Positions 2,784 through 41,200 of a DNA stretch of 64,000 nucleotides are shown piece by piece. The notes beneath the pieces were generated by a model. It saw only the letters and a program-made list of their open reading frames with translations, was not told the origin of the DNA and searched no databases. Within the stretch, counting starts at the first letter, position 1, and every line of letters starts with the position of its first letter. A program made the translations under genes and the position numbers. Source of the stretch: Ditylenchus dipsaci (taxonomy: Eukaryota > Nematoda > Chromadorea > Rhabditida > Anguinidae); the NCBI GenBank assembly GCA_004194705.1, contig SADC01001277.1:248001-312000 (forward strand), in the 5' to 3' direction.

Positions 2784-3404
2784 TAACACTCGGAGGACGC
2801 CCTGAAACAAAGGTGTCTTCTGCTGCAGAATTTCATGCTGAACAACTCTGCAAAAACAGATTTTGCGCGCCTCGAGTCCGAAACCTGACAAATTACCTTT
2901 TTAATATTTTAGTCACAAAAAATGGGTGTCGACTTTAAAACGACCAGTTGACACATTATTTCAAAGTATAGCTAACTATAGCTAAGATTCAGCGCTTTCG
3001 AATGATATGTCATTTGTGTATTTACTACATTTTAAGCACAAATTTTATTATTAACAAATTTTAGTCACGGTGAAAATTCACTTTTAGTGAATTAAGTTAA
3101 TTTTCGGAAAAAAATATTTTTATTTTTATTTAATTTTCAATTTTTTAAAATGTCAATTTCCAGGTCAAGATCTCATTTCAAAGCGCAGACAATAGCGGTT
3201 CGAATGAGTATTCAAACTGGTTAAAAAAGTTTGAAATAATGTGTCAACTGGTCGTTTTAAAGCCGACACCCATTTTTGTGACTAAAATATTAAAAAGGTA
3301 ATTTGTCAGGTTTCGGACTCGAGGCGCGCAAAATCTGTTTTTGCAGAGTTGTTCAGCATGAAATTCTGCACCAGAAGATACCTTTGTTTCAGGGCGAGTG
3401 TTAA
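2784..3404. mobile_element. Foldback MITE with arms of about 180 bp
   Basis: The arm from 2784 (TAACACTCGG, CCCTGAAACAAAGGTGTCTT) is repeated inverted and nearly identical up to 3404. Both arms contain TGCAGAATTTCATGCTGAAC and CCTCGAGTCCGAAACCTGAC. A partial relative lies at 6330-6400. The open frames inside are mirror artefacts. Confidence 0.8.
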
Positions 3405-3486: not shown

Positions 3487-3831
3487 AGACGGCTGATTTT
3501 AAGACCCACTGTAAAAAAACTTTTAAAACAGTATTTCAGAGATTTTTTTCGCAGAGTTTGGACATATCCGTTTTTTCCACATATTGTGCAAAAATTTCAC
3601 ATGTCAACTAAAGCTCAACTTTTCTCAAAATTATATAAGGCGGGAATCTGAAATTTGGAAAATACATGATACCCGTATCATGGATTTTTTCGAATTTGCA
3701 CATAGACGCGATATTGCAATATTCGCACAGTCCGCGGAAAAAACTGAGATGTCCAAACTCTGCAAAAAAATTTTCTGAAGCACGATTTTAAAAGTTTTCA
3801 CGGTGGAACTCAAAATCACGACGGACTGACT
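3487..3831. repeat. Inverted repeat, arms about 85 bp
   Basis: The left arm (GCAGAGTTTGGACAT near 3551) is mirrored by ATGTCCAAACTCTGC near 3748. The AAAACTTTTAAAAC / GATTTTAAAAGTTTT segments extend the pairing outward. It appears to be a separate foldback element next to the 2784-3404 MITE. Bases 3832-4379 contain a weakly coding-like minus-strand stretch (4011-4111) with splice-like edges that I could not join to any gene. Confidence 0.6.
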
Positions 3832-4379
3832 CAATCGTGTTTCCCTAACTGAAAAAAGTACGGCAAACATGTTTGAATCCGTCCTAACATACGCTGGCCT
3901 ACCTTTGCTTAAGCCGAAATATGATACATCACCGAAAAGTCCTTAAAAGATTATACACTTTGTCAAATTTTTCAATAATATTTTATATTTTTTAATCAAA
4001 GACTACTTACTAACCACAAAAAGGAGCTCAAGAAGTGTTTCTAGGTCACTTTGGGAGGCTGAGGTAAAACGGAATAAGTACCCAGCCGTATTTAGAGTGT
4101 TAATCTTATTTCTGAGTCTAGTTTCAAAAGTTGCAATGATTCCAATTTAGAAGGTCAGAAACTCTCGATATAAGCACATATAATTTACCAAAGCGCTCCT
4201 TGAAAGCCGCGGATCTTAATTGAAAAACTTGATACGATCGGCAAATTCGGAATCCTTGGAAACAAACTAGCGAATAAGAATTAGTCAAATGCTTTCAAAA
4301 TTAGGTTAAAATAATTGTACGCAGCTGCGAGGCACGACTGTATACAAAAATGTTCAAGCTTTAAATAAGATTATTTTAC

Positions 4380-35200: not shown

Positions 35201-38200
35201 GGTAATTTTGCTCTTTATGATAGCAAAATGAAAGCGCAGAATCTGGGCTACGTACTGGTATAAAAAAGGGTGAACTTATAGGAAAAAGTTAGAAAATATA
35301 ATCAAAAACACCCAGAGGGATATTTCGGCCTTTCGGTTTTTGTGTAATTTGAACGTTTTTTGAATTACAGCTTTTACAAGTTGGTACTATCTTTTTCTAT
35401 AATAGCAAATACGAAAGCCCAGAACTTTGGCTACTCACTAATTTGAAAAAAGTGTCAACTTGTAAGGTAAAATTCAAAAAATTACACAAAAACCATTTAG
35501 CAGGTAGAGGCCGAAATAACCATCTAGGTGTTTTTGATTACATTTTCTAATTTTTTCCTATAAGTTCACGATTTTTTCATACCAATACGCAGCCCAGATT
35601 CTGGGCTTTCATTTTTGCCATCATTAAGAGCAAAGTTACCATCAAATTAGAGCTCAAATTTGAAAAACAGGAATTGACAAGAAAAAAGGCGGCCAATTTT
35701 TAAAAAAGGCGGCCAAATTCTATTTTTTTATTATGAATTTAAAAAAGGCGGCCAAAAAAATTAAAAAGGCGGCCAAATTCTCACTTTTGGTGGTACATTT
35801 CTCATACAGCCATTTCAAATTACTCTCAGGTTAATAAATATTTGAACTACCACTTATTGTGTCGTCTGAAAGTGAAACGAAAAATTTGGACGAAAAATCT
35901 CTAAATAAAGTACTGATAAAAAAACTCGGTTAATTCGGTTTATAAAGTTGAATCTTGATTTGATGAACAACTGAATCAGTTGTATTTAGCCAGTCATTAA
36001 GTAAAATGACGGTGCTTCTTCGGATCGTGCCGGCCTCTGATTTTTCATTTTTTTGAACTTTTCATCATTATTTTGTTAGCAACTGCTGTGTTTTTTGTTT
36101 TTTTTTACCTTGGGTTTGCCGATTATGTTTAAGTGCGCAATCCTAGATGTTTGAAACAATCTTCAAACTCACCGCCATCCCAAAAAAGTTTTTCGTACAT
36201 ATTGTCCAGCTTGAAAGTTTTCAATTGTTCCATTTTATTAGCTCTGCAAAAAATAGTATGGAACGCATATTGCACTTGTATACAATCGGGAGAAACAAAA
36301 ATATAATGCTCAACAGTTGCTAACAAAATAATGACGAAAAGTTAAAAAAATGAAAAATCAGATGTCGGCCACGATCTGGATAAGTACCAAAATGACTATA
36401 ATGAACGTGCGATTGAGTGATTAATGTCAAATTAAAATAACACTTTTTAGATACCTTCTTATCACAGTCGGAGTAGTCTACATCAAATCAGGAGAATCTC
36501 CGCCCAAAGACATTCTTCGTGACTTGGTAGAGATGTGTAGAGGTGTTCAGCACCCTCTCAGAGGCCTTTTCCTCCGCAACTACTTACTAACCACCACTAA
36601 AGAGTATTTCCAATCCATCTCTATTGCCCAGAGAATGAACCTGGTGTCTCTGGACTGACTGTTTCCAGTCAGGAGCAGTCTAGTGGACTGGACAATTCAC
36701 AAGGAGGTGTTAATGAGGCTATTGAGTTCATCATGACCAACTTCTCAGAAATGAACAAGCTGTGGGTCCGCATGCAACACCAGGTTGACCGTTTGCAATT
36801 GGAATGTGATTGTAAAATTGCTTTTCAGGGTCCTAGTAGAGAGCGCGAGAAGAGGGAAAAGAGAGAAGAGAGCTACGTATTTTGGTTGGCACCAATCTGG
36901 TCAGATTATCCCAACTGGAAAGCCTCAATTTGGACATCTACAGAAAAATAGTGTTGCCAGGCATCCTGGAACAATCAGTTTCGTGCAAGGAACCCATTTC
37001 TCAAGAATATTTGATGGAGTGTGTGATACAGGTGCGTCCCATGACCAATAAATTTGTTTCAAAAAATGAATTGCACAGGTTTCGAAATTCGAATCTTAAA
37101 AGTCTTGATGCTGACCAAAATGAGTAGGGTTGATAGACTCGGGATTGCCAATTTAGAATGTCTTTATAAATTTCAGCTCTGACCAAGCATTTTTTTAAAT
37201 TTATGCAAAGGATTATACAATTTAAAAAGTCCAAAAAAACTCGGTTTTGACAATTTGAAATTGCCCAATCCGTTGCATAACCTTTATTCACAAACACAGG
37301 CACTCTATATTCTGAATTATAGCTGACATATTCAGCAAAAACAACTTTGCATGGTCAGCGCTTAAATCTAAAAAAACACTCAAAATCGCAATTTGACGTC
37401 TGGCAACCCTAAAAATGGGTCATTCGGCAAAATACATGAATCAAGATTAGTACATGATTTTCAGGTATTTCCAGACAGTTTCCACTTGAGCACCCTTCAC
37501 GAGTTTTTGTGGTTAGTTAATTGTCCGAACAATTGTAATAAAAATTTTGCGAAATATGAAATTTTCAGTGCTTGTGCTGAATTGCATGAAGAAGTGCACA
37601 TTAAGAACATACTGGCTACTCTAATTGACCATTTGGCACTGTATGCTGTAGCTGAGGATAGTCCTGGCATTCCAGCAGAAATCCAGTTGTTTGAAATATT
37701 TTCCAACATGCAGAGCAAGTGATTGTCTCCAGGACTGAAGTTATGCCCACAGAGGATGTAATTTCTATACAGGTTAGTAGGGTTGCTCGAAATAAGAAAG
37801 TTTTCGAATCTTTCTAGTAAAAAATTCGAAATTATAGATCGCGCTGCTAAATCTGGCACTGAATTGCTATTCGGACAAAACTGAATTCGCCAACACAGTG
37901 TTTGCCACCACTTCAACTCTTTTCAAAAAGCTGAAAATTACCAAGTAAGTTGACCAGAAGTGAAATCGACTATAAGACTATATATATTTATTTAGTGTCG
38001 CTTTCAACAGTGTTATCGGCAGAGAGCTGGTCAAACTTCTCAAAATTCCAATGGAGCACTACAAAAATGTGATCACTCTGCTGCGCTTGGACAGCTTTGG
38101 AGAAGTGCTGGCTGCTTTCGACCACAAGGGAAGGAATCACATAGCTGCTGCTCTTATCAACAATATGATCACGCATGAAACTGTGGTAGAACAGGAGGAG

Positions 38201-41200
38201 AACATAGACAAGGTTTGTCGTTGTAACGGAGAGGAGAAAATTGCGCACCAAATTTTTTCTTTTAGTCAAAGAGGCAAAAAATTAAATAATTTTTTAAAAA
38301 GTGATAACACCATTAGATAGCGCTGCCATTCTAATTTCTTTGCAAGTTTCATTTTTTAAAACATGTTTTCAAAATGGGTGCCATGGCATTTCGTCCAAAA
38401 TTCAGTTCGTCCAAAGTCAATTCGTCCAAAGACAATTCGTCCAAAATTCAGTTCGTCCAAAAGTCAATTCGTCCAAAATGCATTTCGTCCAAAATGCAAT
38501 TCGTCCAAAATGCAATTCGTCCAAAATGCAGTTCGTCCAAATGCAGTTCGTCCAAAATTCAATTCGTCCAAATTTTAATTTCAAGCTAAAATTTTCGCGA
38601 GAGAACCATTTCAACGATGACAGCATAACTTCAACCGCTCAGAAACCTGTGCCAGAGTGGCCCATAGCCAAAATAAATCTGGTTTCGGGGGTTTACTAAA
38701 TGGGGACAGTCGTTTTTTGCGAAAAAAAAGATATAGCGAAACAGAATCGCAATGAGATCGGGTGAATCGCTCAGAATACTACCGAATATCCGAAGCTATC
38801 CTAAAATCACTGCTTAGGACGGTTTGCAGTAGTTTGCAATGTTCGGTGGTCAGATTCTGAGTGATTCATCCCGTCACAGTGCGATTTTGATTAGCTCGAT
38901 CGTTTTTTCGCAAAAAATTGTCCACCCTTCAGTAAACCCCCAAAAACCGTTTTCATTGGTTTTTCATCTCTATGACATGGGATTTTGGACTCGAGGTAAA
39001 TAGATCTTAGGTGAATTGTCTCTCAATAGGTTACAGGTCCGCAGTGAAGTCCGCAGTGAGGACTGTGGACTGAACCAACTAAACTAAAACCGCTAGAACT
39101 AAAATCGCTTCAAATCACTCCAATGAAACTCAAATCACCCCGAACCAACCAAAATCATTTAAATGACCCCAACTACACCCTAAACAAGTCAGTTAGAATA
39201 GTTAAACTTTTTTGTGGTGATTTGAACGGGATCAAGATATTTGGGGTGGTTTGGGCTCGTTTTGGCTAATACAAAATATCCCTCTCCTTCCTTTGTCGCA
39301 TATTATTTGTCGGGAAATCATGCATCACACCCAGCTAATTTGACAGAATGTCATTTACAGTTAAAAGCACAAAAACCAAACAACGAAATTTATTGCCAAA
39401 TAACGAGAAACAGACAATTTAATATCACCGAGATACTAGACACTAGCCTGCACAGGCGGCTCATAGGCATCTGGACAATAGGTGATCTCGCCATTTCCGG
39501 AAGTGATGGCACCAGCAGTCTCGCCATGCATTTCCATCAGCTTGCCCATTTCGAACTTCGGCTTCTTGATGGTCTTAACCTTGCGAATATAGACGTCTTG
39601 GAGAGGATAGATTCGGAAACACGACTTCTTAATGTCTTTGCCAATGGAATCTGGAATCAGTTTGTTGCACATCACTCTAAGCAATCTAAAATGTCAAATC
39701 AGTCTTATGACGACAAAAGAAATGAAAAAGACCTCTTTCTGCATGATTTCGACCATTTTGGCACGATGACTTAGCATAGCTGAAACAAAGGTAATACCTT
39801 CGGAAATAACTTGAGCAATACTAACCTGGTCTTCTTCACTTGCTGATCAGATGATAGCTTGAGGCTTACTCATAGATGCGCCTCTTCAGGAAGTCACTGG
39901 CGACCTCTGAACCAATCAATTAAAAGGTGAAATGGAAATGTAATTTACTTGTTCCCTGAGACTTGTTGACGAATGTCAATCGTCCCAATGGTACGGTTCG
40001 CGAACGTAGCCGCAGCGTTGACATCGTACCACTCCCTAAAGAAAGCAAGAAACATAAATAAGAAAACCTTCCTGCCGCATAAAAGCTTACTTTCGGGTGA
40101 ACGGATCGACCGCCTTCTTCTTACATCCCTTCTTGCTCATCTTCTTATTTTTGCCGATAGCCATGCTTGCTTTCAACTGCTAAAAACCAATTTATTTACC
40201 AATAGAAACTATGAATCGAAAATATGAAAGCATAAATGACAACAATAATCGGATTAATGTCTCAATCAAATCTTGATCAAAAGGGTGTTGAGGTCGTAGT
40301 CCAAAAGACGTGGTACTTGGGTGACTTAAGGAGAAACAGGTGATATTATTTGGCAGTGCCTACATATCGGTACGCAGGTGGATATGGATCAATAGAGATT
40401 CTGCCAAACTTCATTATGATGTTCGAATTTGGACGAATTGCATTTTGGACGAAATGCATTTTGGACGAAATGCATTTTGGACGAATTGGCTTTTGGACGA
40501 ATTGAATTTTGGACGAATTGTCTTTGGACGAATTGAATTTTGGACGAACTATATTTTGGACGAACTGACTTTGGACGAACTGAATTTTGGACGAAATGCC
40601 ATGGCACCTTCAAAATGTGGCACGAAAAACTAAAACTATGAAACAAATCAGGAAATAATTACTTTTTTCTAACGTGTTTCATACTTTTAGTTTTTCGTGC
40701 CACATTTTGAGAACATGTTTTAAAAAATGATTCTTTTTTAGAACTAGAATGGCAGAGCTATCTAATGGTGTTAAAACTTTTTGAAAAATTGTTCAAATTT
40801 TTGCGTCTTTGAATAAAAGAAAAAAAGCGTAATTTTCCGGCACGCAATTTCCGCCCCCCGCGCCACGCGCAACTTGTTGCGTTTATAGCTCTGAGTTGAG
40901 AGTTTGTGGAATTTGCATCAATAAAGTTAACTTTTTTAGATTTTCGCCCTGATCAGCTCACTGTTGGTGGATGAGCCAGATCAGCCAAAAGATATGCTGG
41001 ATGCAGGAAATTTGGAGGACTTCGAAGAGGATCAGAACCTTGTGGCCAAGCTTGTACATCTCATCTACAATGAAGACCTGGAGCAGCATTTCAAGGTTGT
41101 GTTTTCCGAGTAGTAATGAGTCAAAGTAGTGAATTCAAAATGATTGTTTAGCTTCTGAACCAGATACGCAAGGTTTTCGGACAGGGTGGAGCAGCTCGAC

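What the first reader, a model, noticed from the sequence alone, without database searches (positions are those of the whole stretch)
38377..40608. Mutator-like element that captured an intron-containing RPS3A fragment, inside a VPS35 intron
The element has mirrored termini (GGTGCCATGGCATTTCGTCC) and a 9-bp duplication TTCAAAATG, and encodes no transposase. It contains exons 1, 2, part of 3 and the last exon of ribosomal protein S3a, antisense to VPS35, with introns kept and about 90 central codons missing. Gene-capturing Pack-MULEs are well known in plants but rarely described in animals. Retained introns rule out a processed pseudogene. The element itself sits in an older foldback MITE (38231-40856).
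Basis: partly seen in the sequence, partly recalled or inferred. Interest (0 to 1): 0.88.

Follow-up and report, generated by a model that had tools for sequence, protein, structure and literature searches.

The report
Transposon family carrying a ribosomal gene
In a plant-parasitic nematode, a foldback-type DNA transposon once picked up a complete, intron-containing ribosomal protein gene and spread it around the genome; the copy in this window is a shortened descendant, but the full-length copies show signs that the carried gene was kept working, which is unusual in an animal.

Summary
Window 38377-40608 is a TIR element (20-bp mirrored ends, arms of 16-bp repeats, 9-bp TSD TTCAAAATG) inside a palindromic MITE in a VPS35 intron. 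It carries intron-retaining, antisense RPS3A sequence missing about 90 codons. The interpretation needs revising. It is one of at least 37 RPS3A-carrying element loci in the genome. Shared junctions point to ONE capture, of a COMPLETE 7-exon RPS3A gene, from a locus like C271:15430-16976, which has the segment without transposon arms. Most of the missing codons are a later deletion shared by a subfamily. One held full-length copy (L013) encodes an intact 258-aa protein with six GT-AG introns. Substitutions in 13 full-length copies show purifying selection (N/S 0.38 of neutral, p 4e-6); 13 deleted copies look near neutral (0.80, p 0.15). The genome is almost certainly Ditylenchus dipsaci (inferred). 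Closest known: Tm1 Mutator/Foldback elements of Meloidogyne and plant Pack-MULEs. No mobilising transposase was tied to the termini, so Mutator membership rests on TSD and TIR form. Of 13 full-length copies 11 have frameshifts, which may be real or PacBio errors. Expression of the carried gene was not testable here.

The parts
38377..40608 (.). Non-autonomous foldback/Mutator-like element (deletion-class member of the RPS3A family)
   Evidence: 20-bp perfect mirrored termini, 16-nt repeat arms; 36 further RPS3A-carrying loci with element flanks in the genome
38368..38376 (+). Target site duplication, left copy TTCAAAATG
   Evidence: sequence
40609..40617 (+). Target site duplication, right copy TTCAAAATG
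   Evidence: sequence
38377..38580 (+). Left terminal arm: terminus plus tandem 16-nt TTCGTCCAAAA-type repeats
40428..40608 (-). Right terminal arm, inverted copy of the repeats
39062..40285 (-). Captured chromosomal segment (as left after deletion): RPS3A gene with about 120 bp upstream and about 370 bp downstream; ends fixed to within about 10 bp
   Evidence: homology to C271 locus L009 stops at both ends; junctions shared between copies; element-only relative L056 matches element positions 1-605 and 1909-2232
40091..40164 (-). RPS3A exon 1 (ATG to Lys25, phase 2 donor)
   Evidence: limits read
39949..40035 (-). RPS3A exon 2
   Evidence: limits read
39870..39906 (-). RPS3A exon 3
   Evidence: alignment; limits read
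39838..39845 (-). Junction of the shared internal deletion (intron 3 joined to exon 5; reference 383-388 to 688)
39826..39842 (-). RPS3A exon 5 remnant
   Evidence: limits read
39733..39779 (-). RPS3A exon 6, shorter than in the full-length copy L016 (47 against 64 nt)
   Evidence: limits read
39436..39685 (-). RPS3A exon 7 to the stop codon
   Evidence: Pfam S3Ae E 2.7e-9
38253..38376 (.). Left half of older palindromic MITE (outer limit not independently fixed)
   Evidence: inverted arms; empty copies
40618..40825 (.). Right half of the same MITE, including most of its central hairpin 40610-40710
38045..38212 (+). VPS35 exon upstream of the intron holding the element (part tested; the exon goes on upstream)
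   Evidence: Pfam Vps35; limits read
40940..41095 (+). VPS35 exon downstream of the intron
   Evidence: Pfam Vps35; limits read

Best explanation
A non-autonomous foldback/Mutator-like transposon of the nematode took up, once and at the DNA level, a chromosomal segment holding a complete 7-exon RPS3A gene, about 120 bp upstream of its ATG (with what looks, by eye, like a trans-splice acceptor) and its 3' end. The composite element was mobilised in trans (inferred) and multiplied to at least 37 loci. One derivative lost exon 4 and most of exon 5 and spread as a separate subfamily; the window copy belongs to it and landed in a palindromic MITE within a VPS35 intron. Shown here: element structure, TSDs, shared junctions, an armless donor-type locus, copy number, shared deletion, an intact copy, the substitution pattern. 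Inferred: the transposase source, a template-switch or gap-repair capture step, expression of the carried gene. The window copy itself is a dead passenger.
For: 343 places of the terminus (176 + 167, <=2 mismatches, 0 reversed controls). TSDs: of 30 held elements with both ends, 12 have an exact 9-mer, 4 an exact 8-mer, 23 in all <=1 mismatch over 8 or 9; shuffled pairings gave 0 in 1000 rounds. 38 loci with RPS3A sequence, 37 of them with element flank (from; 40 of 674 candidates scored). C271 (L009) is homologous over the captured segment only, has no CGTCCAAA repeats and has other flanks. Of 29 held RPS3A elements, one search shows the RPS3A-upstream junction in 24, all alike, and the downstream junction in 26, alike in 25 over its first bases (L045 is rearranged there). 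Deletion junction shared. Near-identical full-length copies at different sites: L011/L043 99.0% with no flank match, L016/L023 99.1% with one non-corresponding 88-nt flank match. L013: 258 aa, no frameshift, six GT-AG introns, stop in place; Pfam S3Ae E 1.2e-79; keeps 82 of 83 residues invariant in 30 other RPS3A proteins.
Against: No autonomous partner found: the 115 MULE-domain matches listed (150 of 504 candidates scored) lie no nearer than 15.8 kb to the 100 of 343 termini listed, to 8 further termini or to 22 loci; most termini were not listed. Seven of 30 elements lack a recognisable TSD. C271 is itself decayed (three nonsense codons, a frameshift, three non-GT-AG introns) and 12% diverged, so it is a donor-type locus, not proven to be the donor. 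Past its first bases the downstream junction carries filler that differs between copies.
Confidence: 0.87

Rival explanations
1. The transposon-borne RPS3A is a working mobile gene: full-length elements supply RPS3A protein (in addition to or instead of the chromosomal gene) and are kept by selection on the host.
For: Branch counts in 13 full-length copies: N 54, S 43, 0.38 of neutral, one-sided p 4.3e-6, on internal (0.34) and terminal (0.41) branches; deleted class N 98, S 38, 0.80, p 0.15; difference Fisher p 0.012 (all exons) or 0.020 (same exon columns). Full-length N is 0.39 of the number expected from noncoding sites while S is 1.0 (0.39 and 0.94). Intact copy L013; L016 open but stop mutated. 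The other RPS3A locus closest to the D. destructor protein, C340:62924-63073, shows only exons 1-2 near a contig end.
Against: 11 of 13 full-length copies have at least one frameshift and exon indels are not much rarer than intron indels (52 gap runs in 777 exon columns against 25 in 264 intron columns), though the draft is PacBio-only and no read polishing is described in the section read. In the simpler count the difference between classes is p 0.035 overall, 0.052 for shared and 0.33 for single-copy variants. A subclade (L046, L010, L011, L043) shares a nonsense codon in exon 6 yet multiplied. Tests treat changes as independent. No expression data. C340 may be the main gene with the rest unassembled.
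Confidence: 0.3
2. The purifying-selection signal predates capture: repeated captures from, or gene conversion with, a conserved chromosomal paralog with intron 1, not selection inside the transposon.
For: Other RPS3A loci with exons 1 and 2 apart exist: C271 and C39 and, by coordinates only, C1333. Low N against S between L013 and C271 or C39.
Against: Copies of both classes share the element-gene junction upstream of RPS3A (24 of 24 shown), so substitutions among them are post-capture unless conversion mixed them. C271 and C39 are decayed.
Confidence: 0.2
3. The element belongs to another superfamily with 8-9 bp duplications (for example Merlin) rather than Mutator; capture works the same way.
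For: TSDs are 8 or 9 bp; no transposase was tied to the termini. The Merlin TSD range is recalled, not from a call. No other transposase family than PF10551 was searched.
Against: Long composite arms of tandem repeats with 9-bp TSD match the Mutator/Foldback family Tm1 of related nematodes.
Confidence: 0.15
4. Chance inverted repeat or processed RPS3A pseudogene in an intron.
For: None found.
Against: No terminus match in shuffles, 37 loci, introns kept.
Confidence: 0.01

Closest known systems
Tm1 Mutator/Foldback family of Meloidogyne (PMC3169594)
   Same: Plant-parasitic tylenchid nematode; composite TIRs of short tandem repeats; mostly 9-bp TSDs; MITE-like and cargo-bearing members; authors compare the histone-hairpin members with Pack-MULEs (abstract and passages read).
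   Different: Arm repeat is mostly 14 nt (CGATTCAGTATCGC-like) with asymmetric end motifs; here 16 nt TTCGTCCAAAA-type with GGTGCCATGGCA at both ends. Tm1 histone-hairpin elements show no obvious coding potential; here the cargo is a complete ribosomal protein gene. Tm1 is described as currently inactive; here copies 99% identical sit at different sites.
Pack-MULEs of plants
   Same: Non-autonomous element with 9-bp TSD carrying host gene sequence with introns, no transposase.
   Different: Animal host; whole gene; full-length cargo under purifying selection; transposase link not shown. Plant features recalled.
Histone H3 transduplication by a hAT transposon in fungi (PMC6710886)
   Same: A housekeeping gene captured by a DNA transposon and amplified to many copies (abstract read). 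The abstract also tells of a histone H3 gene in Pyrenophora tritici-repentis amplified to tens of copies, many potentially active.
   Different: Fungi, hAT; in P. fijiensis all captured copies were inactivated by RIP. Here a 7-exon gene in a nematode, with a deleted subfamily as internal control.
Turmoil-1 of C. elegans (PMC2572040)
   Same: DNA transposon of a nematode holding host coding sequence with an intron (first of two parts read).
   Different: Harbinger superfamily; 205-bp and 131-bp gene fragments within its ITRs; the authors say the RRM there is not under purifying selection.
Drosophila FB / Galileo foldback elements
   Same: Long arms of subrepeats.
   Different: Galileo has a P-element transposase (discussion passage of PMC3169594); sequences not compared here; otherwise recalled.

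Membership tests
Pack-MULE (gene-carrying non-autonomous Mutator-like element) | 9-bp (8-10) target site duplication | tested here: met
   23 of 30 elements <=1 mismatch over 8 or 9 nt; 0 in 1000 shuffles
Pack-MULE (gene-carrying non-autonomous Mutator-like element) | Terminal inverted repeats shared with an autonomous MULE | tested here: inconclusive
   TIRs clear, but the nearest of 115 MULE-domain matches is 15.8 kb from a listed terminus; only 108 of 343 termini plus 22 RPS3A or flank loci were compared
Pack-MULE (gene-carrying non-autonomous Mutator-like element) | Host gene sequence between the TIRs, no transposase | tested here: met
   RPS3A exons; none of 9 ORFs matches a transposase
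Pack-MULE (gene-carrying non-autonomous Mutator-like element) | Capture at DNA level with a related chromosomal locus outside the element | tested here: met
   introns kept; C271 locus without arms
Foldback-like element | Arms made of tandem subrepeats, variable in number | tested here: met
   16-nt repeats in both arms, number varying between copies
Tm1 (Meloidogyne) | End motifs CGGTTAA / CCTACCC and 14-nt motif C | tested here: not met
   motifs in paper passages against the window sequence, by eye
Mutator superfamily | Encodes or is mobilised by a MULE transposase | not testable with these tools
   autonomous partner not found; mobility in trans cannot be shown from sequence
Processed pseudogene | No introns | tested here: not met
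   introns retained

The most novel reading that the evidence does not exclude
RPS3A in this nematode has become a mobile ribosomal protein gene: full-length transposon copies carry a complete, selected gene, so a selfish element's spread changes the dosage or variants of a core ribosomal protein, and part of the worm's RPS3A may come from transposons.
Probability: 0.28. Interest if true: 0.86.

Novelty: new variant of a known kind. Interest (0 to 1): 0.64.

Why it matters
Transposon capture of genes is best known from plants and fungi, and mostly as fragments or inactivated copies, though potentially active histone H3 copies are reported in one fungus (abstract of PMC6710886). Here an animal element took a whole essential gene, multiplied it, and left a natural control: full-length copies against a subfamily disabled by one deletion. 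The substitution contrast between them makes it directly testable whether cargo carried by a DNA transposon can stay functional, and whether extra copies of a ribosomal protein gene are tolerated or used. I saw no report of this family, or of a ribosomal protein gene carried this way, in the listings of six searches (15 of 19 papers listed, 7 of 7, none found, 12 of 29, 15 of 21, 3 of 3). Most subscription papers are not held in that library, so this is weak evidence of absence.

Tried and rejected
Looked for an autonomous partner: MULE domain PF10551 (115 matches listed, 150 of 504 candidates scored) against listed termini (100, 8 new ones, none new) and 22 loci: nearest 15.8 kb. The 5-kb element at C95 (L060) has no ORF over 134 aa; its translated pieces were not run against Pfam. 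No Rfam family in the window at gathering threshold.

Considered and set aside: horizontal transfer of RPS3A from outside nematodes (L013 groups with D. destructor and the C340 fragment, support 85; the C340 fragment is only 52 aa). Considered that selection in the full-length class is an artefact of homogenised exons: synonymous changes are at the noncoding rate (43 against 42.3 expected), so exons are not homogenised.

C39 (L049), C1333 and C906 (L051) carry older RPS3A sequences not placed in the family; C1333 letters were not obtained. Rows dropped: of 37 element loci, 29 were held; of these L042 and L047 (partial) were left out of the selection tests, and L039 was used but not. The 13 elements without RPS3A were taken from the first places, 12 of them because two termini lay near each other, so they are not a random sample. 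Identity as Ditylenchus dipsaci rests on assembly size and contig count (226,978,389 bp in 1359 contigs; published 227,234,012 bp in 1,394 scaffolds) and nearest proteins. The assembly is larger than the haploid genome (160-170 Mb), so some copies could be haplotypes; of six pairs compared, four had no flank match, L016/L023 one short match and L043/L046 a few repeat-like matches.

Full report
What is in the window. At 38377-40608 there is a 2,232-bp element with identical 20-bp mirrored ends (0 mismatches; none in shuffles), arms of 16-nt tandem repeats and the 9-bp duplication TTCAAAATG on both sides. None of the 9 ORFs of 60 aa or more overlapping it matches a transposase in Pfam. On the minus strand it holds RPS3A sequence: 508 of 777 coding bases, three frameshifts, introns in place. 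It lies in an intron of VPS35 (Pfam E 9.8e-29) and inside an older palindromic MITE. The MITE flanks joined without the element match 74 places with at most 3 mismatches, the window's own second MITE arm among them, and none in the reversed control; this is the paralogous empty site.

The organism. The genome held has 226,978,389 bases in 1359 contigs. The published Ditylenchus dipsaci draft has 227,234,012 bp in 1,394 scaffolds (section read), and the closest named proteins are from tylenchid nematodes. I infer D. dipsaci. The draft is PacBio with CANU; scaffolding used RNA-seq, and no read polishing is described in the section read. It is larger than the haploid genome, and 537 of 982 BUSCO genes are complete. 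Single-base indels and missing exons must therefore be read with caution, and some copies might be alleles.

The family. The terminus occurs at 343 places with at most 2 mismatches. Thirty held elements have both ends; 12 have exact 9-bp and 4 exact 8-bp duplications, 23 have at most one mismatch over 8 or 9 bases, and shuffled pairings never gave one in 1000 rounds. Thirteen of these 30 showed no RPS3A match; 12 of the 13 are 0.5 to 1.4 kb long and one 5 kb. A DNA search with the window's interior found 40 loci, 38 with RPS3A sequence and 37 of those with element flanks. That is a lower bound, since only 40 of 674 candidates were scored. Letters of 29 of the 37 were held.

The capture. Thirteen held copies are of the full-length kind, with seven exons and six introns of RPS3A (L028 lacks the last codons). 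The locus at C271 (L009) matches the captured segment over about 1.57 kb at 88% and nothing else of the element; it lacks the arm repeats and has other flanks. One search shows the junction upstream of RPS3A in 24 element copies, all alike, with a few bases shared between element and C271 there; it shows the downstream junction in 26, of which 25 are alike over the first bases, after which a filler differs between groups. This points to one capture. A relative without RPS3A (L056) matches the element on both sides of the insert. C271 is a donor-type locus but is itself decayed, so it cannot be called the donor with certainty. Another RPS3A locus, C340, is closer to the D. destructor protein, lacks intron 1, and shows only exons 1-2 near a contig end.

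The deletion. Of 14 held deleted copies with sequence on both sides, 13 join reference position 383-388 to 688 and one (L038) 388 to 698; two more (L042, L047) begin at 688 and have no upstream part. The window copy lost a little more, in exon 6.

Is the cargo alive? L013 encodes 258 aa without frameshift, with its stop codon and all splice sites. It keeps 82 of 83 residues that are invariant in 30 other RPS3A proteins; the same count for each of the others, left out in turn, gives 0 to 2 changes in 28 of 30, 5 and 8 in the rest. L016 is open but its stop codon is mutated. The other 11 of 13 full-length copies have one or more frameshifts. On trees rooted with L009, 13 full-length copies show 54 nonsynonymous and 43 synonymous changes, 0.38 of the neutral ratio (one-sided p 4.3e-6), on internal and terminal branches alike. 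Thirteen deleted copies show 98 and 38, 0.80 of neutral (p 0.15). The two classes differ at p 0.012, or 0.020 on the same exon columns. A simpler majority-base count gives the same direction (0.39 and 0.87 of expected nonsynonymous changes; p 0.035 between classes, 0.052 for shared and 0.33 for single-copy variants), and pooled pairwise pN/pS is 0.31 against 0.73 (14 deleted copies there). Against this: exon indels are not clearly rarer than intron indels (52 gap runs in 777 and 25 in 264 columns), and a subclade of four similar full-length copies shares a nonsense codon. I conclude that the carried gene was under purifying selection during at least part of the family's spread; whether it is expressed is not known.

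Mechanism. Shown: structure, duplications, shared junctions, shared deletion, recent movement (pairs 99% identical at different sites). Inferred: cut-and-paste in trans by a Mutator-like transposase, and capture by repair or template switching at microhomology. The transposase was not found: the 115 MULE-domain matches lie no nearer than 15.8 kb to the termini compared, but most termini were not listed.

Known relatives. Tm1 of Meloidogyne is the nearest family I found in structure and host group (abstract and passages), but its end motifs and repeat differ. Turmoil-1, fungal H3 amplification (abstract) and plant Pack-MULEs (recalled) are parallels; a survey of arthropod MULEs mentions a capacity to capture host genes (passages of PMC13359780). 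In the listings of the searches made I saw no report of this family.

Noticed in passing
L051 (C906:391500-398500), 2895-3062 + and 3739-3858 -: Two inverted copies of RPS3A exon 7 sequence, more diverged, without the GGTGCC termini: perhaps another foldback structure with RPS3A in its arms.
   Followed up: partly
C1333:449055-450092 and L049 (C39:220902-221333): Further RPS3A-like loci with exons 1 and 2 apart but diverged; L049 lacks element arms. Possibly an old chromosomal RPS3A paralog family.
   Followed up: partly
L009 291-719 (C271:14679-15107): Palindromic repeat of about 430 bp beside the donor-type locus, with dozens of 91-97% identical copies in the genome.
   Followed up: no
L050 (C340:62924-63073): RPS3A exons 1 and 2 fused (no intron 1), 92% identical to D. 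destructor over 52 aa when read across a one-base frameshift near the start; contig ends 1.3 kb on; perhaps the ordinary RPS3A gene, incompletely assembled.
   Followed up: partly
L046, L010, L011, L043: Subclade of full-length elements sharing a nonsense codon in exon 6: they multiplied with a disabled cargo.
   Followed up: partly
window 38253-38376 and 40618-40825: Palindromic MITE family of the VPS35 intron, 74 matching places at <=3 mismatches, some in inverted pairs about 94 bp apart.
   Followed up: partly
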